From a virus, in the IMG/VR virus record IMGVR_UViG_3300010885_024450, positions 1-23,452 of that record: a stretch of 23,452 nucleotides of DNA. One strand, 5' to 3'. Shown here one piece after another: positions 7,274-22,400 of this stretch. The first letter of the stretch is position 1, and every line of letters starts with the position of its first letter. A program made the translations under genes and the position numbers. The notes under the pieces were generated by a model. The model was not told where the DNA came from. It saw only the letters and a program-made list of their open reading frames with translations, and did not search any database.

Positions 7274-7648
7274 ATGAAATTAGCTTTTGCACCGCATAAA
7301 ATTTCCAAACTACGACCATTAGGTGACACGGTAATTGTTTCTGAAATGGAGTTTTCAGGCCGCAAACTACAAAGCGGTATTTTATTGTTAAACGACAATG
7401 GTACCACAGCAGGTATCAGACCACGTTGGGGAGAAGTTTATGCCGTTGGCCCTGAACAAAAAGATGTCACTGTTGGGCAATGGATTTGCGTAGCACATGG
7501 CCGTTGGACACGTGGAGTTGAAATCCAAGATGATGTTGGAACAAAAACAATACGAAAAGTTGATCCAAAAGACATTCTATTAATATCTCAAACACAGCCG
7601 TCAGATGATACTCTGTCAGACGCTATTCAAGCATCCTCACGTCGTTAA
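7274..7648 (+). CDS. GroES-like co-chaperonin (gp31-type function)
   Basis: This protein has 124 residues; GroES itself is about 97. The GroES fold signature is clear: LRPLGDTVIVSE at residues 13-24, a short segment where the mobile loop should lie (about residues 27-50, containing SGILLL), then RWGEVYAVGP, VTVGQWICVAHG, and a final strand VDPKDILLI at 97-105. The C-terminal 19 residues are an added polar tail. Such a protein would cap host GroEL and adapt the chamber for phage proteins, as T4 gp31 does for the major capsid protein. The loop differs from GroES, as is usual for phage versions. It sits in an operon with small phage proteins, and its stop overlaps the next start by one base (TAATG). 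GroES homology is good; substrate choice is inference. Confidence 0.75.
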   Translation: MKLAFAPHKISKLRPLGDTVIVSEMEFSGRKLQSGILLLNDNGTTAGIRPRWGEVYAVGPEQKDVTVGQWICVAHGRWTRGVEIQDDVGTKTIRKVDPKDILLISQTQPSDDTLSDAIQASSRR

Positions 7649-7890: not shown

Positions 7891-8053
7891 TAAAAATCAA
7901 TTTGAAAAACTTAAAGAAGTTTTCGAAATGTACGATTTAGACAGAGTAACATGGTCAGAAGAATCTACCAGCGGCATTGGGCCTAATGTTACCATTGAGT
8001 TTGATCCAAAATCAAGTATTAAATTAGATATCACAGATGTGGAGAGTTGGTAA
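7871..8053 (+). CDS. Small phage protein, unknown function
   Basis: This protein has 60 residues, with the start overlapping the previous gene by 20 bases and preceded by an AAAAGAAA run as a weak ribosome binding site. Predicted as one helix (residues 8-20) followed by two beta strands (VTWSEEST; PNVTIEFDP) and a short end. The protein is acidic. It ends one base before the ATG of the clamp loader gene. No motif is recognised; it is kept because the frame is closed exactly between two real genes in the same operon and the codon use looks similar. Confidence 0.5.
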   Translation: MKTIVISKNQFEKLKEVFEMYDLDRVTWSEESTSGIGPNVTIEFDPKSSIKLDITDVESW

Positions 8054-8054
8054 T

Positions 8055-8975
8055 ATGAAAGAACTTTGGACAGAAAAATATCGCCCAGTGGACTTAGATG
8101 GGTATGTATTTAGAGATGACGCACAAAAAGAGCAGGTGGCTGGATGGGTTAAATCTGGTTCAATTCCTCATTTATTGTTTAGTGGTGCGCCAGGAGTAGG
8201 CAAAACCACACTGGCTAAAATACTAATACATCAATTGGGCATTGACGAATATGATTTGTTAGAAATTAATGCATCGAGAGAAAACTCTGTGGACACAATC
8301 AGAGACAAGATCACCGGCTTTGTACAAACAATGCCATTTGGTGAATTTAAAGTTGTGCTCTTAGACGAAGCAGACTACATTACTCCAAACGGACAGGCCG
8401 CATTGCGTGGTGTTATGGAAACTTATCATGCCAGTGCTCGTTTCATTCTTACTTGTAATTACCCTAATCGTATTATCCCTGCACTACATTCCAGATGTCA
8501 GGGCTTCCACATTGAGCGTGTGGATGTTACTGAGTTCACTGCTCGAATGGCCACTGTATTGGTCACAGAAGGTGTAGAGTTTGACTTGGATACCTTAGAC
8601 ACATACGTAAAGGCAACGTATCCTGATCTGCGTAAATGTCTTAACATGTGTCAGATGAATTCCACTAGCGGTCAGCTCATATCCCCCAAAGGTGACGAGG
8701 GCGGCGCAGTCAAGGACTGGAAATTAGATGTAGTTAATTTGTTCAAAGCTGGTCGAGTTAAAGAAGCACGTATCTTATTATGTTCAAGTGTGCGTCCTGA
8801 AGAGATGGAAGAAGTATATCGATGGATGTACGATAATCTTGATTTATGGAGTGACGACACAATGAAGCAAGATCAAGCTATTGTTATTATTAGACAAGGA
8901 ATTGTAAACATTCCAATGATGGCAGATCAAGAAATTAATTTATCAGCAACACTAGTGGAGTTAAGTCAGCTATGA
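8055..8975 (+). CDS. Sliding clamp loader ATPase subunit (T4 gp44 / RFC small-subunit type)
   Basis: This protein has 306 residues, starting at the ATG at 8055; the in-frame ATG at 8037 adds six residues inside the previous gene and is less likely. AAA+ clamp loader landmarks are present in order: the LWTEKYRP opening (4-11), Walker A GAPGVGKT (44-51), Walker B VVLLDEADYI (100-109), sensor-1 region TCNYPNRI (133-140) and the SRC motif SRCQGF (146-151), whose arginine reaches the neighbouring subunit. Length matches T4 gp44 and archaeal or eukaryotic RFC small subunits rather than bacterial DnaX. It uses ATP to open the sliding clamp and load it on primed DNA for the phage replicase. The gp62-type partner is not recognised next to it: the following gene is too short and does not resemble gp62 by eye. 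Confidence 0.9.
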   Translation: MKELWTEKYRPVDLDGYVFRDDAQKEQVAGWVKSGSIPHLLFSGAPGVGKTTLAKILIHQLGIDEYDLLEINASRENSVDTIRDKITGFVQTMPFGEFKVVLLDEADYITPNGQAALRGVMETYHASARFILTCNYPNRIIPALHSRCQGFHIERVDVTEFTARMATVLVTEGVEFDLDTLDTYVKATYPDLRKCLNMCQMNSTSGQLISPKGDEGGAVKDWKLDVVNLFKAGRVKEARILLCSSVRPEEMEEVYRWMYDNLDLWSDDTMKQDQAIVIIRQGIVNIPMMADQEINLSATLVELSQL

Positions 8976-9883: not shown

Positions 9884-9918
9884 TGGGGTCAATGGACTAG
9901 GCCCATTTTTTATTTTTG
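9884..9918 (+). terminator. Probable plus-strand terminator between convergent operons
   Basis: TGGG plus GTC (9884-9890) can pair with GAC (9895-9897) and CCCA (9902-9905) with a four-base bulge, followed by TTTTTTATTTTT (9906-9917). The T-run overlaps the phoH stop codon region. The stem is imperfect, so the call rests mainly on the T-run and its place after the last gene of the plus operon. Confidence 0.5.
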
Positions 9919-10674
9919 ATTGTCTGAATAAAGTTCCAGTATACCATCAATAATTGAGTGGCGTTGAATGTCACGAGATCCAAGTTCGCAAATGGTTAAA
10001 CCATTTACTCCTTGAGTTTTTAGTCTTTTGGCAAGATCTAATAGTCCATTGTTATGGGTGGCTCGATCTGTTTGTTCAACATCTCCTGTGATCACTATTC
10101 GACTTTTTGTACCAATCCTAGTTAGTAACATTTTCATTTGACTAGGGGTAGCATTTTGCATTTCGTCTGCAATGACCCAGGCATTTTTAAAAGTTCTGCC
10201 TCTCATGAATGCCAGCGGGCTAATTTCTATAACTTGATCCTCCATCATTCGTAGAATATCTCTTGGATGGTAGTATTCCTTTAGCACATCCAATAACGGT
10301 CTGGTCCAGGGCTCCATTTTACTAATTAAATCCCCGGGCAAAAACCCGTGCTTTTCGTCGTCAACGCCGACTGCTGGTCGAGTTAAAATAATGCGTTGAC
10401 ATGTGCCTTCTTTAAATGCTTTAATCGCAGACTGCATAGCCAGATATGTTTTTCCTGTACCTGCAGGACCCACTGCAACTGTAATGTGGTTGCTGGGATC
10501 CATTAGACTTAGTACTAAACGTTCTTGACCTCTGGTTTTGGGGATTATTTCAACCTGACGTGGTTGATGCTTTACTGCTTGATTAAAATTGATGGTGTTT
10601 TCTTCCATCGCCTGTATGCGTTTTTGCGCCTTGGCGCCTCTAGCTCTACTCAAATCTGATTCTCCTCTGAACAT
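9910..10674 (-). CDS. phoH: PhoH-family ATPase
   Basis: This protein has 254 residues. The PhoH core is clear: Walker A GPAGTGKT (69-76), the conserved ILTRPAVGVDDEKHGFLPGD region (96-115), MEPWTRPLLD (120-129), Walker B WVIADEMQN (166-174) and ITGDVEQTD further on. PhoH is an ATP-binding, RNA- or nuclease-linked protein, very common in T4-like aquatic phages; in bacteria it was first seen in the phosphate-starvation regulon, but its phage role is unsettled. The N-terminal 35 residues are a basic, poorly conserved lead. It is encoded alone on the minus strand between two plus-strand operons. A CTAAATA motif at 10701-10707 on the minus strand lies 26 bases ahead of the start, and a perfect hairpin lies after its stop. 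Confidence 0.93.
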   Translation of the reverse strand: MFRGESDLSRARGAKAQKRIQAMEENTINFNQAVKHQPRQVEIIPKTRGQERLVLSLMDPSNHITVAVGPAGTGKTYLAMQSAIKAFKEGTCQRIILTRPAVGVDDEKHGFLPGDLISKMEPWTRPLLDVLKEYYHPRDILRMMEDQVIEISPLAFMRGRTFKNAWVIADEMQNATPSQMKMLLTRIGTKSRIVITGDVEQTDRATHNNGLLDLAKRLKTQGVNGLTICELGSRDIQRHSIIDGILELYSDNQK

Positions 10675-11435: not shown

Positions 11436-11952
11436 AGGCCTTGAGTACAAGGACCTAGAGGGCATGATGAAGCCCACTATCCACGTTGATGAATTTGCCA
11501 GTAAAATGGGCGACGACGACGAAATCATTGTACTAAGCTTTTTTGTTCGCAGTAAACAGGCAGCAAAAGATCTTGTCAATTGGTTTGAAAAAGGCTATGA
11601 CTTTGTGTTGGATTCAGACACTAGCCCGGGCGAAATCAAAGCTGGTCGTTATCTTGTTTATGTAGAAATGCGTAGACGCAGTACTTCGGGCAAACACACA
11701 GCAGAATTAATTGATGATCTGGGTACTCTTACTGAGTTTGGTCCAGACGAATGGACCATGCGTTACGAAGGCAAAGAGCATCCTTTTACTGAGGAAATCT
11801 TTGACAGTTTAGTTCCGCTGAGTCCTAAACTGTATCGCAAAGAAAAAGAGTCTGAACTAAACGAAATGCGCACAGCCGCTGGCATACAACCAAAACAAAT
11901 TTTTGAACGCGAAAAAGATATTCGCAGTCTACAGGCCGCCGCTGGTATATAA
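11410..11952 (+). CDS. Conserved T4-like aquatic phage protein with C-terminal AAGI repeats
   Basis: This protein has 180 residues, taking the ATG at 11410 because a near-perfect Shine-Dalgarno GGAGGA (11400-11405) sits just before it; an in-frame ATG at 11347 has none. The body is alpha/beta with a segment EIIVLSFFVRSKQAAKDLVNWF and later YLVYVEMRRRST. At the end two copies of an EM/SLxxAAGI motif occur (AAGI at 156-159 and 177-180), a short repeat that I recall from T4-like phage proteins and may be a binding peptide. No catalytic motif. It overlaps the preceding gene by 26 bases and is followed by the SGNH gene after eight bases. Function unknown. Confidence 0.62.
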   Translation: MNNNQPLFEGLEYKDLEGMMKPTIHVDEFASKMGDDDEIIVLSFFVRSKQAAKDLVNWFEKGYDFVLDSDTSPGEIKAGRYLVYVEMRRRSTSGKHTAELIDDLGTLTEFGPDEWTMRYEGKEHPFTEEIFDSLVPLSPKLYRKEKESELNEMRTAAGIQPKQIFEREKDIRSLQAAAGI

Positions 11953-11960
11953 CTATACCT

Positions 11961-12602
11961 ATGAAACTCAAAAGCTTTGGGTGCAGTTTCATTTTTGGAA
12001 CAGATTTATCTGACGACGGAAATGGCGCTGCCTGGGCCACACCCAGTAAACTAACTTGGCCCGCACATCTTGCTAATCATTTAGATTACCAATATGTTTG
12101 TTATGCTCGTCCGGGCATAGGCAATCTCAGCATACTTGACCGTGTGTTAAATCAAGCAGGTTGCAATGATCATAGTTTGTTTGTTATTGGGTGGACTTGG
12201 ATTGATCGATTTGACCACACTGATCACAAAGATGATTGGCTAACACTACGTCCTGTAGAAAAAGATAGTAATGCTAAATTTTACTTTAAAAATCTACACT
12301 CTGAGTACAGAGATAAACTCAATACTCTAATGTGTATGCGTATAGCTATAGACACGCTTAAAGAAAAAAACTGTCCATTTATAATGACCTACATGGACGA
12401 CTTGACTTTTGACAGCAAGTATCATGCGCCACCGGGAATCATGGACCTACAAAACTATGTACGTCCTTACATGACCAAGTTTGAAAATAAGAATTTCTTA
12501 GAGTGGAGTCAGTTTAAAAGGTATCCTATCAGTGATACCTTGCACCCTTTAGAGCAAGCTCATTTAGCCGCCTTTGATTTAATCAAAGACATCAAGATTT
12601 AG
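11961..12602 (+). CDS. SGNH/GDSL-type hydrolase-like protein
   Basis: This protein has 213 residues. The fold signature is an N-terminal strand followed by GCSFIFG with Ser9 as the putative nucleophile, a block II glycine in RPGIGNL, and a C-terminal DTLHP with Asp192 and His195 completing the triad. SGNH proteins hydrolyse or transfer acyl groups (acetyl esters on glycans, lipid esters). There is no signal peptide, so it would act in the cytoplasm or on the virion. It ends 11 bases into the convergent minus-strand methyltransferase gene. Together with the second SGNH protein at 18637 it brackets the accessory cluster. The family call is fairly good; the substrate is unknown. Confidence 0.65.
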   Translation: MKLKSFGCSFIFGTDLSDDGNGAAWATPSKLTWPAHLANHLDYQYVCYARPGIGNLSILDRVLNQAGCNDHSLFVIGWTWIDRFDHTDHKDDWLTLRPVEKDSNAKFYFKNLHSEYRDKLNTLMCMRIAIDTLKEKNCPFIMTYMDDLTFDSKYHAPPGIMDLQNYVRPYMTKFENKNFLEWSQFKRYPISDTLHPLEQAHLAAFDLIKDIKI

Positions 12603-13317
12603 AATACACAAAGTACAGTCTATCGTTGTTGTCCTTTTTAAATTCCAACAACTTTAACTTGTACTTGTCAGCAAACTCTTTGACTATTTCAAAACTCCAG
12701 GGAAATATATCAACATATGGACCTGTTTTGTGCGGAATACCAGGGTTGGCACGTAGGTAAAATTTACCGCCTGTATCCAATAGATTTACACATTTAGCAA
12801 AGCGTGATTCAATCTCATCACGACTATTAAAGTTAATTGATCCTAACGCAATAATAACGTCGTGACTGCCAACATAGTCCAGAATGTCAACCATGTAATC
12901 GGCGCAGTTGTTATAGGGATCAATACCAACAACATTGTCGATGCGGCCTTTGAATGGATGATATCCACAACCAACATCTAGTACACTACGTGGGTTGAGT
13001 TGATTGATTTCTTCAGCCAACTGCCAGCCTGTGTAGTCATAGTCGCCAGTTCTAGGTTTCCAGATTTCGCCAAAAAAGCGATTGATATAACGTTCGCTGA
13101 GATCAGCAGTTATGTTCTTTAATGTACCAACATAATCACAGGGTAACTGTAATTCGGCATCCACAGCGTCTTTGAATTTACGATATCTAGCCGGAGTCCA
13201 CGGAAGTTTATCAACTTCTATGTCTGGCCCGATTGAATCAAGAACTCGTTGGTACTTGGGTAAATTAAAGGCGGTCTGCAAATTTTTAGTTAATAAGTTA
13301 AAAATTTTGATGTTCAT
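12592..13317 (-). CDS. Class I SAM-dependent methyltransferase-like protein
   Basis: This protein has 241 residues. A Rossmann methyltransferase core is visible: motif I VLDVGCGYHPF (SAM-binding glycine loop), the acidic end of strand 2 VVGIDPYNN, motif post-I with VIIALGSINF, and LLDTGGKFYLRANPG as the strand 4-5 region. The N-terminal 85 residues are helical and may recognise the substrate. The C-terminus ends in a beta strand (DRLYFVYS). No DNA-methyltransferase catalytic motif (DPPY or PCQ) is seen, so a small-molecule, glycan or protein target is more likely than DNA. The gene is alone on the minus strand and overlaps the plus-strand SGNH gene tail to tail. Its ribosome binding site is AAAGG, about 12 bases before the start. 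Reaction class is secure, target unknown. Confidence 0.75.
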   Translation of the reverse strand: MNIKIFNLLTKNLQTAFNLPKYQRVLDSIGPDIEVDKLPWTPARYRKFKDAVDAELQLPCDYVGTLKNITADLSERYINRFFGEIWKPRTGDYDYTGWQLAEEINQLNPRSVLDVGCGYHPFKGRIDNVVGIDPYNNCADYMVDILDYVGSHDVIIALGSINFNSRDEIESRFAKCVNLLDTGGKFYLRANPGIPHKTGPYVDIFPWSFEIVKEFADKYKLKLLEFKKDNNDRLYFVYSKS

Positions 13318-13335
13318 ATAAAATTTTACCTTTGG

Positions 13336-13343
13336 GATAAATA
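13336..13343 (+). promoter_or_regulatory. Putative T4-type late promoter (GATAAATA)
   Basis: The motif GATAAATA lies just upstream of a hairpin (13350-13378) and 70 bases before the ATG at 13413. It matches the NATAAATA late promoter shape seen at 1080 and 20652. A transcript from it would begin at or within a few bases of the hairpin. A short AT-rich motif can occur by chance. Confidence 0.4.
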
Positions 13344-13349
13344 ATTTTA

Positions 13350-13385
13350 CAAGACCTGTAAAAATTTTCCTGGTCTTGTTTTTTT
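13350..13385 (+). terminator. Terminator-like hairpin in the leader of the diiron protein gene
   Basis: CAAGACC (13350-13356) pairs with GGTCTTG (13372-13378), followed by seven T's (13379-13385). It could end read-through transcription from the 10.8-12.6 kb operon, or act as an attenuator or 5'-end stabilising stem for the gene at 13413. A rival stem, TTTTAC (13345-13350) with GTAAAA (13358-13363), would trap the 5' arm in its loop. Confidence 0.75.
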
Positions 13386-13412
13386 AATTAAGTATATATC
13401 CAAGGAGACAAC

Positions 13413-14111
13413 ATGCTTACAGGAAAACAGTTCGTAGAAAAATTGGTTTTGGACAACCAAGCCCTTTTCAAAGCCAGCCAACACAACGTCAAGGCCTACT
13501 TTGATTCAAAGCCTGCTCAAGAAGAGTTGGTAGAACACTTCATTGGCCGCATGGTCAATGAGCGTATGAACATGGTTGAAATCAGCCGTGCCATTGCTGA
13601 CATGCCAGCAGATACAGATCCAGTTGAATTGCAACTGTTGACACAACAAGCACACGATGAAGCAGTTCACTTCCGTTTGGTCAAGGAAGTTATTGAGCAC
13701 ATTCAAGGTAGCCCTGTTGATGTTGAAGCCGCAATTGCTCGTGAAGCCGCAAAGCCCACAGCAAAAGGCGCTGGCCTGTTGGCCAAGTATGATGCACAGG
13801 ACGACGCTGCCGCATTGGCTGCATATCAATTGGTTGCTGAAGGCCGTGCAGAAGCTGTTTGGAATACCATGGCTGATTGCATTGAAGATAGTTTCATCTC
13901 CGGCGCATATCGTAAAATTGCCAAAGACGAAGGTTTCCACAGCAACATTGGTGCTCGTAGCCTGGCCAAGTTAGTTGAGTCTGCTGAAGAGCAAGCTCGT
14001 ATTGAATCTTTGGTAGTTGCAATGCGCCGAGACTTGTATGAAATTTCATGCAAGAATACTGTTGCTGCCGATTCTGGCAAGCAATTGGTTGCTGACGCTT
14101 ACGGATGGTAA
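13413..14111 (+). CDS. Ferritin-like diiron protein (putative oxygenase/oxidase)
   Basis: This protein has 232 residues and is nearly all alpha-helical. The metal-ligand pattern of ferritin-like diiron enzymes is present: Glu50 in VNERMN, ExxH in DEAVHF (Glu83, His86), a helix with EGRAEAVW (Glu143 or Glu147), and ExxH in DEGFHS (Glu173, His176). Two ExxH motifs with single Glu ligands between suit O2-activating enzymes (PaaA, AurF, MiaE or R2-like) more than storage ferritin, whose ligand set differs. A strong ribosome binding site (AAGGAGA) and an evenly high-quality codon use (many GCC, GTT, CGT, AAG) suggest high expression. It opens the accessory operon, with a terminator-like leader upstream. 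The substrate cannot be told; the closest family cannot be decided by eye. Confidence 0.7.
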   Translation: MLTGKQFVEKLVLDNQALFKASQHNVKAYFDSKPAQEELVEHFIGRMVNERMNMVEISRAIADMPADTDPVELQLLTQQAHDEAVHFRLVKEVIEHIQGSPVDVEAAIAREAAKPTAKGAGLLAKYDAQDDAAALAAYQLVAEGRAEAVWNTMADCIEDSFISGAYRKIAKDEGFHSNIGARSLAKLVESAEEQARIESLVVAMRRDLYEISCKNTVAADSGKQLVADAYGW

Positions 14112-14112
14112 T

Positions 14113-14658
14113 TTGGTAATAGGACTCAGTCAACGAATCCTATACCATCGAGGTAGGGCGTATGATTCTATTGAGCACGGGTGGTACTCGTTCTTGGCAG
14201 GGCATACGCTCTTTTATCTACCAAACACACTAAACGTAGATTTTGATTCAATTGCAGACCATTTAGATTCATTTGTAATAACAGGCGGTGATGACAGTAC
14301 ATTGCGCAGAACTGTAGAAACTCGATTGTCTTCGGCAATGATGCAACGTAATAAACCTGTAGTAGGCATCTGTCACGGTGCATTTTTACTCACAGATCTA
14401 TTAGGTGGCACCATTGAGGACATAGATGCACATCGTGATACCAACCACCCTGTAATGTATTTTGGGGAAATCAAAATTGTTAACAGTTTTCACAGTCAGG
14501 GTATTACAAAATTGCACAGTACAGGAACAGCACTCTGTACAGACGAACTGGGACAAATAGAAGCCTGGATTGATGGTAAATTAGCAGGGGTGGTCTGGCA
14601 TCCTGAACGCATGGATAGGCCATGGTTACCAGATGAAATAGAAACATTACTTTTTTAA
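14113..14658 (+). CDS. Class I glutamine amidotransferase-like hydrolase (peptidase C26 type)
   Basis: This protein has 181 residues from the TTG at 14113, one base after the preceding stop, with GGATGG just upstream; longer starts would run into the diiron gene. The GATase class I pattern is complete: opening VIGLSQR, oxyanion region VITGGDD (55-61), nucleophile elbow GICHG with Cys87, a VNSFHSQGI segment (123-131), and the catalytic HPE (His163, Glu165). The layout resembles stand-alone gamma-glutamyl hydrolases (PuuD-like, and the Campylobacter enzyme acting on gamma-glutamyl-CDP-amidate), not synthetase-fused subunits. It would cleave a gamma-glutamyl amide or release ammonia. The same coupled run encodes an APS-kinase-like enzyme, which makes a surface-modification role attractive; that is inference. 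TTG start is uncertain. Confidence 0.72.
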   Translation: MVIGLSQRILYHRGRAYDSIEHGWYSFLAGHTLFYLPNTLNVDFDSIADHLDSFVITGGDDSTLRRTVETRLSSAMMQRNKPVVGICHGAFLLTDLLGGTIEDIDAHRDTNHPVMYFGEIKIVNSFHSQGITKLHSTGTALCTDELGQIEAWIDGKLAGVVWHPERMDRPWLPDEIETLLF

Positions 14659-14667
14659 GGAAACAAA

Positions 14668-15648
14668 ATGAAACGTATTTTAGCCTTGTTGCTTGTTACC
14701 GCAAGCACACTAGTCCACGCATGGGAGCCCACAAAGCCCGTTACTGTGTTTGTGGGTAATACACCTGGAGCAGGCAACGAAATTGCCTTTAGAAAATTAG
14801 CAGAAATTGTACAAAAACAAAATCCTAAATTTGTTTATGTTGTGCAAAATATTCCTGGAGCAGATTCAACAATTGCAAACAATAGATTTCTAGATGTACA
14901 CAACGATGGGTACACTATTAACTTGCCTAGTCACATGAGTTCTTATGTGACAAATGATATTTGGGAAAAGAAAATTAAAAAATACAACTACGACACATTT
15001 GTTGATGTATTGACCATAGGTAAAAGTCCACTAGTGCTGGTAGCTGGGTCCAAAAGCACAGTTGAAACCCCAATTGATTTTGTTAGATATATCCACACTT
15101 CCACAAAACCAATTAATATTGCCGTGGGAGGTGGCGCACATCGCACAGCATATGAATACCTGATTGAATCAGCTCACGGTGATCGCAATCTTATCAAACC
15201 AATTAGATTCAATGGCCCGGCGCCTGCGGTACAAAGTGTAGCCAGTTATGATCCCAAGCTGGGAGGTACAGAGTTTGGTATTATGCCTATTGCTGTTGCC
15301 CGTCCTCTAGTAGAAGCAGGCAAGGTAAAAGCAATTGGGTTTACTGGCACACGCACAATGCCTCAATATCCCAACGTGCCACTGTTAAATTCCATTGCAC
15401 CTGGGATTAATGTATACGCCGCTTGGGCAATTCAATTACCCCCAAACACTCCACAGGAAATTGTAGACTGGTATCAAAAAACATTCAGCACCGCAGTTCG
15501 CAGTAAAGAATACAAAGAGTGGCGTGATCTTAATGTGGTGTTTTATGTAGAGGAAGAGTTAACACCCGCGGGCCTTAAGAAACAAATGGATAATTTGCGA
15601 GACAACTTTTTACCAGTACTCAGTAAAATTGATTTAAGTAAAGAATGA
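14668..15648 (+). CDS. TctC/Bug-type periplasmic solute-binding protein
   Basis: This protein has 326 residues, normal for the family. The N-terminus is a clear signal peptide (MKRILALLLVTASTLVHA, cleavage near residue 18). Family landmarks follow: FVGNTPGAGNEIAFRKLA (lobe 1 ligand loop), VVQNIPGADSTIANN, DGYTI, INIAVGGGAHRTAYEYL (the GSGS-like pocket loop) and a C-terminal lobe with LPPNTPQEIVDWY. In bacteria these proteins deliver tricarboxylates or other organic acids to TctAB or act as sensors. Here no TctA or TctB gene is seen, so the phage supplies only the binding protein. A good AAGGAAA site precedes the start. The family is very common in betaproteobacteria, which points to the host. 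The role in infection (uptake, receptor masking, sensing) is inference. Confidence 0.85.
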   Translation: MKRILALLLVTASTLVHAWEPTKPVTVFVGNTPGAGNEIAFRKLAEIVQKQNPKFVYVVQNIPGADSTIANNRFLDVHNDGYTINLPSHMSSYVTNDIWEKKIKKYNYDTFVDVLTIGKSPLVLVAGSKSTVETPIDFVRYIHTSTKPINIAVGGGAHRTAYEYLIESAHGDRNLIKPIRFNGPAPAVQSVASYDPKLGGTEFGIMPIAVARPLVEAGKVKAIGFTGTRTMPQYPNVPLLNSIAPGINVYAAWAIQLPPNTPQEIVDWYQKTFSTAVRSKEYKEWRDLNVVFYVEEELTPAGLKKQMDNLRDNFLPVLSKIDLSKE

Positions 15649-16280
15649 AATATATCTTTGTAGCCGGTGCTCCTGGCTCAAAATGGAGTAGCGTGGTTAA
15701 AAACATTTACTATAGTCCCAACATTGACCGTAGTGATTACAGAGACGAGTGGACTTATTACCATGACGCTGGCGATACTGGAGTTAAAGAACTAATGCAC
15801 TTGGGTGCATACTTTGACCCTGGCATGATCAGTCCGTTGCCTAAAGATTTAACTACATTAACACGTGACCAATTAGAATCTATATTTGAACAACCATTTC
15901 AAAATAAAAAATCTAAAGGCATACGTATTATTAAAAGTCATGTGTTTAGTAATCATATTGAATATCTGCGTAAATTATTTCCTGAAACACCTATTGTGAT
16001 TGTACATCGTAATAATGATAGTTGTTTAGGATGGTGGGTCAAGTGTGGGCATTTTGACATTACATACCCTGACTATCACGAGTATTTCAAAGACTTAACA
16101 ACAATGGCAAAGATCATTAAAAGTCAAAATGCTGATATTTTATCTGCTTGGTGGAAGTATACCAACGGTAAAGTAGTTACAGATAATCTACAGTTAGCTA
16201 AAGCATTAAATATTGAACTTCCGCCGGCGGAGTATTCTCAGGACTATGCAACATCAGACATAAGGGTAAAAGTAATATGA
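15645..16280 (+). CDS. Sulfotransferase-like P-loop protein
   Basis: This protein has 211 residues, with the ATG overlapping the upstream stop (ATGA). The N-terminal strand and loop VAGAPGSKWSSVVKNI (residues 6-21) match the 5'-phosphosulfate binding loop of sulfotransferases. IRIIKSHVFSNHIEYL (93-108) resembles the region after the catalytic base, and VIVHRNNDSCLGWW (118-131) matches the 3'-phosphate binding element, with Arg122 and Ser126. No signal peptide. A PAPS-dependent group transfer to a sugar, lipid or protein is the natural reading; use of another 3'-phosphonucleotide donor is possible. Two further P-loop proteins of this type and an APS-kinase-like enzyme lie nearby. Fold fairly sure, acceptor unknown. 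Confidence 0.65.
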   Translation: MKYIFVAGAPGSKWSSVVKNIYYSPNIDRSDYRDEWTYYHDAGDTGVKELMHLGAYFDPGMISPLPKDLTTLTRDQLESIFEQPFQNKKSKGIRIIKSHVFSNHIEYLRKLFPETPIVIVHRNNDSCLGWWVKCGHFDITYPDYHEYFKDLTTMAKIIKSQNADILSAWWKYTNGKVVTDNLQLAKALNIELPPAEYSQDYATSDIRVKVI

Positions 16281-16936
16281 TAACAGAAGAATTCAAAAGC
16301 AGTTGGGATTTTACTAAAAGTAAAAGTACTTATCACTTTGACCCCACAAGACTGGATCGCTTTGAAGATGTGATTGCACATCTAGGGCACATTGAACCTA
16401 CCTGGTCAGAGGATGTGGCAGACATTGTTGCCAACAGCAAACCAGCAACCTGGGAAACACGTGGCTACAAAGGCGAAGGAGTATTGCCCCCAAGAGAGGA
16501 TCTTGTTGCAGAAGAATATGACCTAGAGCGTGTGGGTGCTGATCCCAAAATGATTATCACTCATTTAAATTGGGCTATTCCCGAATCACTAAACCGGATC
16601 ACCGCGGCATTTGGTCTAGACGATTGCATGGAACGCATACACGTACAACGCCCTGGGGAAGTTTGGAACCTACACATGGACAAGCTAAACAAGTGGGCAC
16701 CTGAAGACCCCACACGAGTGGGTCGTTATTTTATACAATTGACAGACTGGCAACCAGGACAGTTCTGGGAGTATGGCAACTATCACTGGAACCAATGGCG
16801 TGCCGGAGATGTTTCAACATTTGACTGGGCCAACATACCACACTCCACAGCCAATGCAGGTCACCACCCTAGAGTGACATTTCAGTTGACTGGTGTAATT
16901 ACTGACCAAACTCGAGCATTTTTAGCCACACTATGA
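16277..16936 (+). CDS. 2OG-Fe(II) dioxygenase, aspartyl/asparaginyl hydroxylase-like
   Basis: This protein has 219 residues, with an ATGA overlap at both ends of the gene. The C-terminal double-stranded beta-helix has the facial triad: HMD in WNLHMDKLNKW (His133, Asp135) and His189 in NIPHSTANAG, with Arg199 in HHPRVTFQLTGV as the 2-oxoglutarate carboxylate ligand. Spacing and the RxF(I/V)QLTxWQPG strand (about 150-161) are those of aspartyl/asparaginyl beta-hydroxylase-like cupins. The N-terminal 90 residues are a helical, Trp-containing extension. It would hydroxylate a protein side chain, sugar or small molecule using O2 and 2-oxoglutarate. 2OG oxygenases are common in aquatic T4-like phages without known targets. 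Reaction class is likely; the target is open. Confidence 0.75.
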   Translation: MITEEFKSSWDFTKSKSTYHFDPTRLDRFEDVIAHLGHIEPTWSEDVADIVANSKPATWETRGYKGEGVLPPREDLVAEEYDLERVGADPKMIITHLNWAIPESLNRITAAFGLDDCMERIHVQRPGEVWNLHMDKLNKWAPEDPTRVGRYFIQLTDWQPGQFWEYGNYHWNQWRAGDVSTFDWANIPHSTANAGHHPRVTFQLTGVITDQTRAFLATL

Positions 16937-17559
16937 AAACTCTGTTGATCATTACAGGCCCACAAGGGTCAGGAAATCATTTATGGTCAAAGATATTTGC
17001 CTTACATCCTGACGTTTGGGCCTGGCATGCCTTATTACATGAATACTGGATTGGGCACGATCAAGAACCCTTTGCTGAGTACTGGGAAGACCCGGACCGG
17101 TTAAAAGACTTTGTGTGGGGCGAGTGCGAGTATTTTGTTACTAGCATAAGCACACCCTACATTCTCAACGGTGAACGTACCATACCCAACATTGTGCGCT
17201 TTGCTGCCACAGCTATGGGTCTGGGCATACGTGTAAAGATTGCTATTATAGGACGGGATCGTAATATATTACACTATCAAGAGACTCGTGTGCGAGGCGA
17301 ACCCACATATGATATAGCACTGGCAGAATATGAAAAATTAACAACATGGGATCCTGTATTCCTAAGTTACGAGTTACTGCATCTTTATAAAGAAAATTAT
17401 CTACGTCAAATTTCAAAGCAATTGGAATTCCCCATTGATTTAGATCACCCAAGATTGAATAATATACTAGTAGATGATACTAACCGTAAATACTTTCAAC
17501 CTGTGGACTATCACTCCACAGATGATCTAGCACAACACACTTCAAGGAAATGGAAATGA
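16933..17559 (+). CDS. Second P-loop sulfotransferase-like protein
   Basis: This protein has 208 residues, coupled by ATGA overlaps to both neighbours. The loop LLIITGPQGSGNHLWSKIF (4-22) is a nucleotide or PAPS-binding P-loop with the SGNH variation often seen in phage sulfotransferase-like proteins (GSGxHL rather than GKT/S). IAIIGRDRNILHYQETRVRG (104-122) resembles the 3'-phosphate binding segment. The loop lacks the Walker A lysine, so an ATPase or kinase is unlikely. The protein is soluble and Trp/His-rich near residues 29-52 (WAWHALLHEYW). It may use the activated donor made by the enzyme encoded directly downstream. The sulfotransferase assignment is less certain than for the 15645 protein. 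Confidence 0.55.
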   Translation: MKTLLIITGPQGSGNHLWSKIFALHPDVWAWHALLHEYWIGHDQEPFAEYWEDPDRLKDFVWGECEYFVTSISTPYILNGERTIPNIVRFAATAMGLGIRVKIAIIGRDRNILHYQETRVRGEPTYDIALAEYEKLTTWDPVFLSYELLHLYKENYLRQISKQLEFPIDLDHPRLNNILVDDTNRKYFQPVDYHSTDDLAQHTSRKWK

Positions 17560-18416
17560 CACAACGTATATTAATAATGGGATTACCTGGCGCTGGAAAA
17601 ACATACCTGGCACAGGCACTAAAAAAGTATCTTGAAACTAATGGGGATTTAATGAAAATTAATCCCAGTCGAGTAATGAATTATGAAGGAATACCCGGTC
17701 CCAACTTTATGAATGTAGGTGTTGATTGGTTCAATGCCGACGACATTCGTAAAAAGTATAACGATTGGGATTTTTCTGATGCTGGACGTATTCGTCAAAG
17801 TTTGCGTATGTTCCAATTTGCCATAGAGTGCTCAGGAGAATATGTGATCTGTGACTTTGTTGCACCCCTGGTAGAGATGCGCAACAATTTCAAAGCTGAT
17901 TGGACCATCTGGGTTGACACCATTGATAAAGGCCGTTACGAAGATACCAACAAGGCCTTTGTTCCGCCTGAAGTATATGATTTTAGAATTACAGAACAAA
18001 ATGCTGAAAAATGGGCTGAGTTTATTGGATCGCATATATTAGAAAATCGCCGTCGGCCAGTGTTTGATTGGCAAAAAGAAACTGTGCAAATGTTAGGCCG
18101 TTGGCAACCTTGGCATGCCGGGCACCGTGCGTTATTTGAACGAGCTATAGCCAAAACTGGGCAAGTGGTAATTCAAATACGTGACTGTCAAGGATGGCAA
18201 GGCTCTAACCCATTTGAAATTGAAAAAGTCAAATCTTTCATTCGACGTGACTTAGATACTTTATATCAAGGTCAATACGAAATACAAGTTGTGCCCAATA
18301 TTGTAAACATCACTTATGGCAGGGATGTTGGCTATAAAATTGAACAGGAAACTTTTGACTCTTCAGTGACTGATATCAGCGCAACTAAAATTCGTAAGAG
18401 CATGGGTCTTGAGTGA
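17556..18416 (+). CDS. APS kinase-like domain fused to an HxGH nucleotidyltransferase domain
   Basis: This protein has 286 residues. The start is the ATG at 17556: it overlaps the upstream stop (ATGA) and has AAGGA at a proper distance, whereas the ATG at 17550 abuts that site. Residues 1-160 resemble APS kinase (CysC): Walker A GLPGAGKT (9-16), VDWFNADDIRKKY (56-68; CysC has DGDNVR), WDFSDAGRIRQSLR (71-84) and CDFVAPLVEMRNNF (99-112). About 20 extra residues lie between the P-loop and the DxD-type segment. Residues 178-286 are a nucleotidyltransferase of the HxGH type: GRWQPWHAGHRALF with H187-A-G-H190, and a closing ISATKIR (274-280), as in NMN adenylyl- or cytidylyltransferases. It may build an activated 3'-phosphonucleotide donor. 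Substrates are unproven; ATP sulfurylase identity is not supported. Confidence 0.75.
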   Translation: MTQRILIMGLPGAGKTYLAQALKKYLETNGDLMKINPSRVMNYEGIPGPNFMNVGVDWFNADDIRKKYNDWDFSDAGRIRQSLRMFQFAIECSGEYVICDFVAPLVEMRNNFKADWTIWVDTIDKGRYEDTNKAFVPPEVYDFRITEQNAEKWAEFIGSHILENRRRPVFDWQKETVQMLGRWQPWHAGHRALFERAIAKTGQVVIQIRDCQGWQGSNPFEIEKVKSFIRRDLDTLYQGQYEIQVVPNIVNITYGRDVGYKIEQETFDSSVTDISATKIRKSMGLE

Positions 18417-20679: not shown

Positions 20680-21315
20680 ATGAGCTTTGACTTTGAATTT
20701 ACACAGCAACAACTAAATCAAATGGTTCCTGGAAATCCTTATATAGATCACTGGTTCGAAGCAATAGCAGAAATACTTCCTGACTACGATATCAATACTA
20801 AATCTCGTGTAGCAATGTTTATTGCACAATGCGCACACGAATCAGGCGGGTTCCGAGCCATTAAAGAAAATTTAAATTACAAGGCAGCAAGTTTACGCAA
20901 GATATTTCCAAAATATTTCCCTAATGATGCAATAGCCAATCAATATGCTGGTTTACCCAACAAACAAGAAGCAATTGCCAATAGAATATATGCTAATAGA
21001 ATGGGCAATGGTCCGGAAGAATCAGGCGATGGCTATCGTTATTGTGGGCGTGGTCTTATACAGTTAACTGGCAAATCAAACTACGAAAATTTTGCTGCCA
21101 GTATTGAAGCCGCAGTAGAGGATGTTCCTGAATATCTAGCAACCTTTGAGGGTGCAGTACAATCAGCCTGTTGGTTCTGGGAAACCAACAATTTAAATCG
21201 CTGGGCTGATCAAGGCGATGTGCTTACCGTTACTAAAAAGATTAATGGCGGTACAATTGGCCTGGAAGATCGCATTAAACATTATAATCATGCCTTGCAA
21301 ATATTAGGAGATTAA
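20680..21315 (+). CDS. Endolysin, GH19 chitinase/lysozyme-like
   Basis: This protein has 211 residues, the size of single-domain phage GH19 lysins. Typical pattern: FIAQCAHESGGFRAIKENLNY (47-67) with the two catalytic glutamates Glu54 and Glu63, YANRMGNG, GYRYCGRGLIQLTGKSNY (the conserved substrate-cleft segment), and a C-terminal INGGTIGLEDRIKHY. It would cleave peptidoglycan glycan strands. There is no signal peptide or SAR anchor, so it needs a holin to reach the wall. An AGGA site precedes the start, and a late-promoter-like motif is at 20651. It is the first gene of the lysis operon and is followed after one base by the spanin candidate. Confidence 0.9.
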   Translation: MSFDFEFTQQQLNQMVPGNPYIDHWFEAIAEILPDYDINTKSRVAMFIAQCAHESGGFRAIKENLNYKAASLRKIFPKYFPNDAIANQYAGLPNKQEAIANRIYANRMGNGPEESGDGYRYCGRGLIQLTGKSNYENFAASIEAAVEDVPEYLATFEGAVQSACWFWETNNLNRWADQGDVLTVTKKINGGTIGLEDRIKHYNHALQILGD

Positions 21316-21316
21316 T

Positions 21317-21790
21317 ATGTGGCAATTTCAATGGATGTTAAATTTTATACCCGATGCAATGTTAAACTGGGCGTGTTGGGCAGTTATTGCAGTTGGTGTA
21401 TCTGGCATTGTTGCAGGTTGGTTAGGTAAATTTATTCCATTTTATGGAAGCTATGCACACATATTAAAACCAATAGGTGTTGTTATTTTATTGTTAGGCG
21501 TCTGGTTACGTGGCGGATATGATACTGAAATGGCTTGGCGTGTCAAGGTCAACGAAGCACAGGCAAAAGTAGCAAAAGCAGAACAAGAATCCAAAGAAGC
21601 CAATGAGGTATTGGCTAAAAAAGTTGAGGATAAAGTCAAATATATCAAGGGTCGCACTGAATATATTACACGTTACATAGACAAAGAAATTATAAAATAC
21701 GATACTAAGTTTATGCCCGGAGGTGAGTGTGAAATCCCAAAAGAATTTATTCGAGCACACAATGATTCAGCAGAGGCACCTAGTAAATGA
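21317..21790 (+). CDS. Inner-membrane spanin-like protein with two membrane spans (possible holin function)
   Basis: This protein has 157 residues, with AGGAG six bases before the ATG. Two hydrophobic spans are seen: about residues 15-36 and 52-66, joined by a short loop with Lys38, His48 and Lys51. Residues 74-125 are a charged, Ala/Lys/Glu-rich coiled coil, as in Rz-type i-spanins, and a single cysteine lies near the C-terminus (GGECEI). Positive residues in the loop favour N-out, loop-in, C-out topology, which would place the coiled coil in the periplasm as a spanin needs. Rz usually has one span. The stop overlaps the o-spanin ATG (ATGA), the usual spanin arrangement. No separate holin gene is visible, so this protein may also contribute that role; that is speculation. 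Confidence 0.65.
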   Translation: MWQFQWMLNFIPDAMLNWACWAVIAVGVSGIVAGWLGKFIPFYGSYAHILKPIGVVILLLGVWLRGGYDTEMAWRVKVNEAQAKVAKAEQESKEANEVLAKKVEDKVKYIKGRTEYITRYIDKEIIKYDTKFMPGGECEIPKEFIRAHNDSAEAPSK

Positions 21791-22050
21791 AATATATTAT
21801 TATCTCACTAGTTGTGTTGTTGTCGGCTTGTACGGCTGTGCCTGTTGTGCCTAATTTTCCCGACACACCGGGCAAAAACACATTAGAACGTTGCCCTAAT
21901 TTAAAAAAGTTAAAAGAAGATCCTGCACTCAGCGATGTATCTAAAACTGTAGCTGAAAATTACGGAACATATTACGAATGTGCTGTAAAGGTCGACGTGT
22001 GGATTGAATGGTATCATATCCAAAAGAAAATATACGAGGACATAAAATGA
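21787..22050 (+). CDS. Outer-membrane lipoprotein spanin (Rz1-like)
   Basis: This protein has 87 residues. The signal peptide ends in a lipobox LLSAC with Cys15 as the lipidated residue (MKYIIISLVVLLSAC). A proline-containing stretch follows (VPVVPNFPDTPG), then a helical C-terminal domain with two cysteines. Size, lipobox, Pro-rich linker and the direct overlap with the coiled-coil inner-membrane gene fit an o-spanin, which pairs with the i-spanin across the periplasm to fuse inner and outer membranes at lysis. It is longer than the classical Rz1. Its stop overlaps the next ATG (ATGA). A different lipoprotein role cannot be excluded. Confidence 0.7.
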   Translation: MKYIIISLVVLLSACTAVPVVPNFPDTPGKNTLERCPNLKKLKEDPALSDVSKTVAENYGTYYECAVKVDVWIEWYHIQKKIYEDIK

Positions 22051-22400
22051 AAAGTGTTCTATTATTAGTTGCAGTTGTTACATTAACAGGATGCAGTACC
22101 ATCAAAGAATATTGGCCCAGAGCACACGATCCAGAAATGTTTGGACTATTAGTTGACACGGATATTGCCATTGAGCGTGTTAATTGTGAGTTGCCAGATT
22201 GGTCTAAAGCTGTTGATTCATCAACTCGCCTGGCACGATTTAGTGACTGGCGCAGTGATCCTCAAGCCATAAACCTCAAAGGGCTACAAACACATACAGA
22301 ACGTATGAGTCAAGGCGGTAGCAAAATGTTCTGTGAACTTGGAAAGAAAACTGCCGCACAACGTATACAAGCTGCCAAGTCAGCCTGGGAAGGAAGATAA
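22047..22400 (+). CDS. Second phage lipoprotein, unknown function
   Basis: This protein has 117 residues from the ATG at 22047 (ATGA overlap); a longer in-frame start at 22008 would bury the signal peptide. MKSVLLLVAVVTLTGC has a lipobox LTGC with Cys16. The mature part is hydrophilic and helical, with a WSKAVDSSTRLARFSDW segment and two more cysteines. Lipoproteins made late by phages can be spanins, superinfection-exclusion proteins or receptor blockers; which applies is not visible. Position right after the o-spanin suggests an envelope role at lysis or exclusion. No family recognised. Confidence 0.65.
   Translation: MKSVLLLVAVVTLTGCSTIKEYWPRAHDPEMFGLLVDTDIAIERVNCELPDWSKAVDSSTRLARFSDWRSDPQAINLKGLQTHTERMSQGGSKMFCELGKKTAAQRIQAAKSAWEGR

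What the first reader, a model, noticed from the sequence alone, without database searches (positions are those of the whole stretch)
13413..14111. Ferritin-like diiron enzyme candidate with signs of high expression
Two ExxH motifs (83-86, 173-176) with Glu50 and Glu143/147 give a full diiron site of the O2-activating type. The gene has the strongest Shine-Dalgarno in the accessory region and codon use that looks richer in GC-ending codons than neighbours. A highly made phage oxygenase beside a GATase is not something I can match to a known pathway; N-oxygenation or hydroxylation of an amine is one possibility.
Basis: partly seen in the sequence, partly recalled or inferred. Interest (0 to 1): 0.58.

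Follow-up and report, generated by a model that had tools for sequence, protein, structure and literature searches.

The report
Phage oxygenase paired with amide hydrolase
Hundreds of uncultured aquatic phage sequences carry a strongly expressed gene for an oxygen-using two-metal enzyme, almost always beside a gene for an enzyme that cuts glutamate-type amide bonds, which suggests that these viruses chemically modify a nitrogen compound inside their host.

Summary
The gene at 13413-14111 encodes a 232-residue helical protein (AlphaFold mean pLDDT 94.8). In 129 distinct relatives (minimum pairwise identity 30%) only 25 positions are invariant, and these include all six expected ligands: E50, E83, H86, E143, E173, H176. 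E147 varies, so it is not a ligand. The ligand pattern is ferritin-like; the nearest profiles are ribonucleotide reductase R2 and AurF, but the protein lacks AurF's third histidine and is below every Pfam cut-off. It is a separate, essentially viral family: at least 320 IMG/VR stretches, none in 50,697 phage records, two chromosomal copies nested inside the viral tree. High expression is supported (strongest Shine-Dalgarno and lowest ENC of 31 window genes, late-promoter-like leader). The neighbour GATase is not incidental: within 8 kb on the same strand in 107 of 113 viral loci; 52 of 54 GATase loci hold the oxygenase. Its model matches gamma-glutamyl hydrolases SpuA and PuuD best. Published diiron + GATase pairs exist (DnfA/DnfC, TsnB7/TsnB9). 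Best reading: an O2-activating hydroxylase acting on a gamma-glutamyl amide, with the GATase cleaving the product. Substrate and chemistry are inferred; metal geometry was not seen.

The parts
13338..13343 (+). TAAATA, T4-late-promoter-like element (context GGATAAATAATT)
   Evidence: TAAATA within 130 nt upstream in 80 of 92 distinct diiron leaders against 304 of 1292 control ORFs of the same loci. That T4 late promoters read TATAAATA is recalled.
13349..13379 (+). Leader hairpin, 8-bp stem ACAAGACC/GGTCTTGT, loop of 15
   Evidence: RNAfold; window leader z -4.49; 28 of 55 leaders have p<=0.05 against dinucleotide shuffles, mean z -1.97. Covariation not shown: the alignment gave no consensus structure.
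13402..13407 (+). Shine-Dalgarno AAGGAG
   Evidence: Strongest anti-SD pairing of 31 window genes, -8.5 kcal/mol
13413..14111 (+). Ferritin-like dimetal-carboxylate protein, 232 aa, ligands E50, E83, H86, E143, E173, H176
14113..14658 (+). GATase / Peptidase_C26, gamma-glutamyl-hydrolase-like, 181 aa, start TTG 14113; C87, H163, E165
   Evidence: Peptidase_C26 50.5 bits over cut-off 20.5; C87/H163/E165 invariant in 25; model best matches SpuA Z 20.7 and PuuD Z 20.0
14668..15648 (+). TctC/Bug-type periplasmic solute receptor
   Evidence: PF03401 65.3 bits over cut-off 27. TctC or TctA genes within 8 kb in 55 of 113 viral loci.
12592..13317 (-). Divergent SAM-methyltransferase-like gene
   Evidence: Weak Pfam only; family within 8 kb in 93 of 113 viral loci
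15645..16280 (+). P-loop sulfotransferase-like gene
   Evidence: Sulfotransfer_3 26.1 bits, just below cut-off 27; merged cluster 1 in 103 of 113 viral loci
16277..16936 (+). Possible 2OG/Fe(II) hydroxylase (HxD...H read by eye)
   Evidence: No Pfam hit at E<=1; label is my reading; clusters with the previous gene through a fused ORF
16933..17559 (+). Second P-loop gene (cluster 4)
   Evidence: In 75 of 113 viral loci; also in the Massilia and Janthinobacterium clusters
17550..18416 (+). APS-kinase-like plus nucleotidyltransferase-like gene (cluster 13)
   Evidence: APS_kinase 25.8 bits over 21.1; CTP_transf_like 17.0 below 21; 28 of 113 loci

Best explanation
The gene encodes an O2-activating dimetal-carboxylate (Fe/Fe or Mn/Fe) oxygenase of the ferritin-like superfamily that works as one half of a two-enzyme pair with the GATase downstream. 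The oxygenase hydroxylates a compound carrying a gamma-glutamyl amide: the amide nitrogen of glutamine, as proposed for DnfA and TsnB7, or the alkyl group of a gamma-glutamyl amine, as in the Ipu pathway. The PuuD/SpuA-like GATase then cleaves the gamma-glutamyl bond and releases the oxidised amine. In about half of the loci a TctC-type receptor, sometimes with TctA, would feed the pathway. The pair is made late and in quantity from its own promoter and leader. Shown: conserved six-residue site, predicted fold, pairing, expression signals in the sequence. Inferred: metal loading, electron donor from the host, substrate, product, timing, benefit to the phage.
For: Six ligands invariant in 129 distinct proteins, with D82, D172, N53 and Y138 also invariant, placed on successive helices of a confident model. 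Profile alignment nearest R2 and AurF; a weak alignment to R2lox 6qrz (E 0.65) puts all six on its ligands. GATase within 8 kb same strand in 107 of 113 viral loci, directly next in 74; reciprocally the diiron gene in 52 of 54 GATase loci, including GATases only 35-42% identical. Triad C/H/E intact; the fold matches stand-alone gamma-glutamyl hydrolases best. TctC-diiron-TctC-diiron-GATase order in L272, L281, L282. Precedents DnfA/DnfC, TsnB7/TsnB9, Ipu and aniline routes. Expression.
Against: No substrate evidence. AurF's third His is absent (I in 124, V in 5 of 129 at position 169), so this is not the DnfA/TsnB7 family. No DnfB-like 2Fe-2S partner: Fer2 above cut-off in 0 of 30 large records; no glutamine-synthetase-like ligase in 0 of 30; records may be fragments. 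Six viral loci and both chromosomal clusters have the oxygenase without a nearby GATase, and in L062, L078 and the two chromosomes a cupin sits beside it. The GATase fold ranks SpuA/PuuD above DnfC (rank 49). TctC/TctA absent within 8 kb in 58 of 113 loci.
Confidence: 0.42

Rival explanations
1. The enzyme is a tailoring oxygenase for a small molecule, glycan or virion component made by the whole cassette (methyltransferase, sulfotransferase-like P-loop genes, possible 2OG hydroxylase, cupin); the GATase supplies ammonia or trims an intermediate.
For: Cassette genes recur: merged P-loop/2OG cluster in 103, methyltransferase in 93, second P-loop in 75 of 113 viral loci; L051 and L065 carry arrays of these genes near a tail-fibre-like gene. 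Massilia and Janthinobacterium chromosomes hold a cluster with the same genes plus sulfatase, PaaK-like and transporter genes.
Against: The tandem-diiron loci (L180-L182, L184-L186, L196-L198) mostly keep diiron + GATase + Tct genes with fewer of the other genes. The GATase resembles stand-alone hydrolases more than ammonia-channelling domains.
Confidence: 0.27
2. The protein is a ferroxidase, iron store or peroxide scavenger protecting the infected cell.
For: Ferritin-like fold and six ligands; BFVD best match is a rubrerythrin-like Acidovorax phage protein at E 3e-3; high expression.
Against: No sequence match above cut-off to ferritin, Dps or rubrerythrin models. Near-obligate GATase partner and tandem paralogues are not expected of a store.
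Confidence: 0.1
3. The protein is an R2lox/R2-like dimetal oxidase that makes a radical or self-cross-link rather than turning over a small amide.
For: Best profile match is R2. Y138 lies 5 before E143 and N53 lies 3 after E50, the offsets of the cross-linked Y162 and V72 in R2lox (PMC6060897 passages); both invariant in 129 of 129.
Against: N53 replaces the valine, so the ether link is not expected. PF00268 score 14.7 against cut-off 33.6. The GATase link is unexplained.
Confidence: 0.12
4. A helical structural or host-binding protein that has kept the fold but not the chemistry.
For: Strong conservation and expression; invariant C-terminal AYGW in 32 close relatives.
Against: All six ligands kept in 129 of 129, also in both copies of 14 tandem pairs 41-49% identical.
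Confidence: 0.04

Closest known systems
DnfA/DnfC of direct ammonia oxidation (Alcaligenes)
   Same: Diiron oxygenase paired with a class-I GATase; ligand spacing similar (DnfA E88, E123, H126, E182, E213, H216; PMC9478400 passages)
   Different: DnfA has a third His (H209) that is I or V here; DnfB reductase not found; GATase fold closer to SpuA/PuuD than to DnfC
TsnB7/TsnB9 of trichostatin A biosynthesis
   Same: AurF-type oxygenase making glutamic acid monohydroxamate plus hydroxyamidotransferase (described in PMC11160463 passages)
   Different: AurF family with a third His; no trichostatin genes looked for; sequences not compared directly
[quoted passage not shown]
   Same: Four Glu and two His; first ligand Glu; Tyr 5 before the third-helix Glu; identical 33-residue first spacing (E69-E102, here E50-E83)
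   Different: Asn instead of Val at E+3; 232 aa; position 147 (A171 in R2lox, which opens the ligand channel) is E, A or S
Ipu (isopropylamine) and aniline pathways
   Same: Oxygenase plus GATase acting around gamma-glutamyl amides (PMC6776027, PMC4539516 passages)
   Different: Oxygenase is P450 or dioxygenase; both start with a glutamine-synthetase-like ligase, absent here in 30 records
Cyanobacterial ADO, MiaE, CADD/TenA/PqqC
   Same: Helical fold, VIA Z 16-17
   Different: No sequence match to MiaE (probability 0.5). The HO-like diiron ligand set (recalled HxxxDxxH) is not met. Z ties do not separate families of helical bundles.

Membership tests
Ferritin-like dimetal-carboxylate superfamily | Glu, ExxH, Glu, ExxH on four successive core helices | tested here: met
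   Residues 50; 83/86; 143; 173/176 on helices 36-62, 70-98, 132-156, 160-187; each 129/129
Ferritin-like dimetal-carboxylate superfamily | Six side chains converge on two metals | not testable with these tools
AurF / N-oxygenase (PF11583) | Third His ligand four residues before the last Glu (DnfA H209/E213) | tested here: not met
   Position 169 is I in 124, V in 5 of 129
AurF / N-oxygenase (PF11583) | Pfam cut-off | tested here: not met
   P0001 no hit at E<=1; 13 of 37 members hit, best E 0.0017
R2 / R2lox (PF00268) | Pfam cut-off | tested here: not met
   14.7 bits against 33.6
R2lox | Val (or Ile) at E+3 and Tyr at E-5 forming the ether link | tested here: not met
   Tyr present 129/129, but Asn at E+3 129/129; offsets
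PaaA_PaaC (PF05138) | Pfam cut-off | tested here: not met
   P0001 15.4 bits; best of ten members scanned singly, L187, 24.6 against 28.5
MiaE (PF06175) | Profile similarity | tested here: not met
   HHalign probability 0.5, E 0.11 with 12 MiaE sequences
HO-like diiron oxidases (CADD, UndA) | HxxxDxxH plus ExxxxxxH ligand set (recalled) | tested here: not met
   Corresponding residues are I/V169, E173, H176, and E83xxH86 replaces ExxxxxxH. The fold itself ties.
PuuD/SpuA-type gamma-glutamyl hydrolase (for the GATase) | Cys-His-Glu triad and Peptidase_C26 profile | tested here: met
   C87, H163, E165 invariant in 25; 50.5 bits over 20.5; SpuA Z 20.7, rmsd 2.6, 181 aligned
PuuD/SpuA-type gamma-glutamyl hydrolase (for the GATase) | Hydrolysis of gamma-glutamyl amides | not testable with these tools
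   Needs an assay
Gamma-glutamyl-CDP-amidate hydrolase (NF045546) | NCBIfam equivalog cut-off | tested here: not met
   59.7 bits against 250
Direct ammonia oxidation (dnfABC) | DnfB-type FNR/2Fe-2S reductase partner | tested here: inconclusive
   Fer2 above cut-off in 0 of 30 large records, which may be fragments

The most novel reading that the evidence does not exclude
Large aquatic phages carry their own version of the glutamine N-hydroxylation chemistry known from DnfA/DnfC and TsnB7/TsnB9: they turn glutamine (or an imported gamma-glutamyl amide) into a hydroxamate and release hydroxylamine or a hydroxylated amine during late infection, with a dimetal enzyme outside the AurF family. That would be virus-run oxidation of organic nitrogen in natural waters.
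Probability: 0.14. Interest if true: 0.86.

Novelty: new variant of a known kind. Interest (0 to 1): 0.68.

Why it matters
A dimetal oxygenase family that is almost only viral, common in uncultured phage contigs, absent from 50,697 phage records, and locked to one partner enzyme is a concrete, assayable case of virus-encoded oxidative metabolism. If the pair acts on glutamine or gamma-glutamyl amides, phages redirect host nitrogen in a way not counted in nitrogen budgets. For enzymology it would add an oxygenase with an R2-like ligand set, an invariant Asn/Tyr pair at the R2lox cross-link positions, and a natural E/A/S switch at the residue that lines the R2lox substrate channel.

Tried and rejected
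Sequence searches that gave nothing: PHROGs, PDB phmmer with P0001, phage and plasmid tblastn, phage blastn of 11900-16900, Rfam and tRNA scans. A match of L189 to a fused tobacco-mosaic coat protein at E 2e-4 was set aside as chance: two weak repeats of one stretch. The Campylobacter phosphoramidate idea from NF045546 was dropped because the score is far below cut-off. I first read the leader inverted repeat as a terminator; the tool scan did not list it, and its place just after TAAATA in many relatives fits a leader hairpin better. Consensus folding failed because the loops misaligned, so covariation is unproved. R2/R2lox, MiaE, HO-like, AurF and PaaA readings were tested as families (membership table); ADO and TenA/PqqC were seen only as fold matches. 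Rows left out: 2 truncated proteins and partial L192; identical or contained proteins; the AurF comparison used 3 sequences, R2 11 of 12, PaaA/C 11. Many IMG/VR contigs are near copies from related samples, so locus counts are not independent events. Literature: searches (auxiliary metabolic gene, diiron, ferritin-like, tricarboxylate, amidotransferase terms) listed no paper on this phage pair by title or abstract; only the PMC library was searched, and passages of PMC12195039 and PMC7674155 held none of the terms for it. tctA as a phage-carried gene is already in print (PMC6359870 passage).

Full report
What is there. The window is a 23,452-base virus record. The clamp loader at 8037-8975 is closest to Pseudomonas jumbo phages of the PA5oct kind at 55% identity, and a PhoH gene lies at 9910-10674, so this is a fragment of a tailed phage. 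The gene in question reads 13413-14111, 232 aa.

Is the site real? Two ExxH motifs by themselves are weak (1,782 of 20,000 shuffles). Relatives settle it. IMG/VR scans returned 229 of 233 matched stretches as relatives with P0001 and 320 of 373 with the alignment A1, of which 80 are kept per scan; a scan with the Janthinobacterium homologue added 36 new loci, mostly divergent, a scan with a divergent member added further copies, and loci fetched through the GATase added more. In 129 distinct proteins, minimum pairwise identity 30%, 25 positions are invariant; they include E50, E83, H86, E143, E173, H176, the Asp before each ExxH (D82, D172), N53 and Y138. Position 147 is E 88, A 28, S 13. All six sit on successive helices of a model with mean pLDDT 94.8 and pTM 0.91.

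Which kind? P0001 reaches no Pfam cut-off. Across 37 members weak matches go to DUF455 (22), PaaA_PaaC (20), R2 (17), Ferritin_2 (15) and AurF (13). HHalign of the 129-protein alignment against sequences drawn from Pseudomonadota genomes gave R2 93.3, AurF 87.7, PaaA/C 49.8, DUF455 6.4, MiaE 0.5. The one PDB hit of the wider profile, at a non-significant E of 0.65, was 6qrz, R2lox of Sulfolobus acidocaldarius (identity of 6QRZ from PMC8377027 passages), and its alignment sets all six ligands on the R2lox-type ligands. In R2lox the ligands are E69, E102, H105, E167, E202, H205, and the ether link joins V72 and Y162 (PMC6060897 passages); the phage family has invariant Asn and Tyr at these two offsets. 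R2lox A171, which opens the ligand channel (PMC4118035 passages), corresponds by offset to the variable position 147. AurF's third His is missing: I 124, V 5 at position 169. Structure searches do not decide between families, and BFVD holds no match with E<=0.001. The protein is therefore best treated as a separate family within the ferritin-like superfamily.

Where it occurs. No match in 50,697 phage records or 72,556 plasmids. Among 84,980 species genomes the pattern scan gave four contigs: two MAG contigs with phage-type neighbours (L082, L083) and two chromosomes, Massilia atriviolacea and a Janthinobacterium. HMM searches of 392 genomes of that family and 398 of its phylum added none. The two chromosomal copies form one clade (100/98) nested in viral sequences (94/81 with L062 and L078; 99/89 for seven rows; 99/90 for eleven) in a midpoint-rooted tree of 108 rows, which points to transfer from viruses to bacteria, though the root is not fixed. 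Both chromosomes share a cluster with a second ferritin-like DUF455-type protein, a nucleotidyltransferase, a PaaK-like protein, an NMT1-type transporter, methyltransferase, P-loop genes, sulfatase and cupin.

Its partner. In 113 viral loci with at least 1.5 kb downstream, the GATase family lies within 8 kb on the same strand in 107 and directly next in 74; the six without are L022, L038, L062, L078, L178, L193. In the other direction, 54 loci found with the window GATase include 52 with a diiron homologue; of the two without, L251 begins 1.2 kb from its contig end and L288 has a 66-base match at a contig end. Fourteen divergent loci hold two tandem diiron genes, 41-49% identical, all with six ligands; L272, L281 and L282 read TctC-diiron-TctC-diiron-GATase. 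TctC/TctA occur within 8 kb in 55 and a cupin in 19 of 113. The GATase starts at TTG 14113, right after the diiron stop, has an intact triad, exceeds the Peptidase_C26 and GATase cut-offs, and its model (pLDDT 92.1) matches SpuA (Z 20.7) and PuuD (20.0) over all 181 residues, ahead of glutaminase domains at 18.7 and below.

Expression. SD strongest and ENC lowest of 31 window genes; lowest ENC in 50 and strongest SD in 41 of 92 loci, highest GC3 only in 4. TAAATA occurs upstream in 80 of 92 leaders against 304 of 1,292 control ORFs, followed in many by a hairpin; 28 of 55 leaders fold better than shuffles at p<=0.05. Twelve leaders lack the element, eight of them in the divergent group L164-L177. 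Late, strong transcription is the likely reading; it is not shown.

How it may work. A published logic fits a diiron oxygenase plus a stand-alone GATase: DnfAB is reported to hydroxylate the glutamine amide and DnfC to hydrolyse the hydroxamate, though one group found no direct evidence that DnfA oxidises glutamine; TsnB7/TsnB9 are described as doing this in trichostatin biosynthesis (PMC11440038, PMC9478400, PMC11160463 passages). A second logic is oxidation of a gamma-glutamyl amine followed by GATase release, as in isopropylamine use (PMC6776027 passages), or with the GATase as detoxifier in aniline use (PMC4539516 passages). I favour this class of reaction at 0.42 for the whole statement. 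Against it: no reductase or ligase in 30 large records, loci without GATase, and a GATase fold nearer to PuuD than to DnfC. The main rival is a tailoring role inside the wider cassette.

Verdict. A real, widespread, well-conserved viral dimetal enzyme with a near-obligate GATase partner; new family, precedented kind of pairing, substrate unknown.

Noticed in passing
L347:13673-14857 (-) and L348:8165-9244: The bacterial cluster holds a second ferritin-like protein (DUF455 type, two DExxH), 62.5% identical between Janthinobacterium and Massilia, next to nucleotidyltransferase and PaaK-like genes.
   Followed up: partly
L003:6119-7564, L051:9249-10697, L065:9249-10697: Phage contigs encode TctA-type membrane subunits (PF01970, 294 bits in L003) with a TctC-like receptor and, in L051 and L065, a small membrane protein, i.e. 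a near-complete TTT transporter.
   Followed up: partly
L051 and L065, downstream of 12 kb: Arrays of repeated 2OG-like, P-loop and methyltransferase genes follow the cassette near a tail-fibre-like gene.
   Followed up: no
L078/L231 and L204 (one 138-kb contig): One phage contig carries two diiron loci about 100 kb apart, of different subfamilies.
   Followed up: no
L266-L270, L275, L276, L286: In these viruses the GATase is divergent from the diiron gene instead of co-directional, with methyltransferase and, in L266, L267, L269 and L276, TctA and TctC-like genes nearby.
   Followed up: no
window 7274-7648: By eye a GroES-like co-chaperonin; not tested.
   Followed up: no
window 20680-22400: By eye a lysis region: chitinase/lysozyme-like gene, membrane protein and small lipoproteins resembling spanins; not tested.
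   Followed up: no
window 9910-10674 (-): PhoH-like gene on the opposite strand (phrog_170, E 1.4e-70), a recurrent neighbour upstream of the cassette in 41 loci including the window.
   Followed up: no
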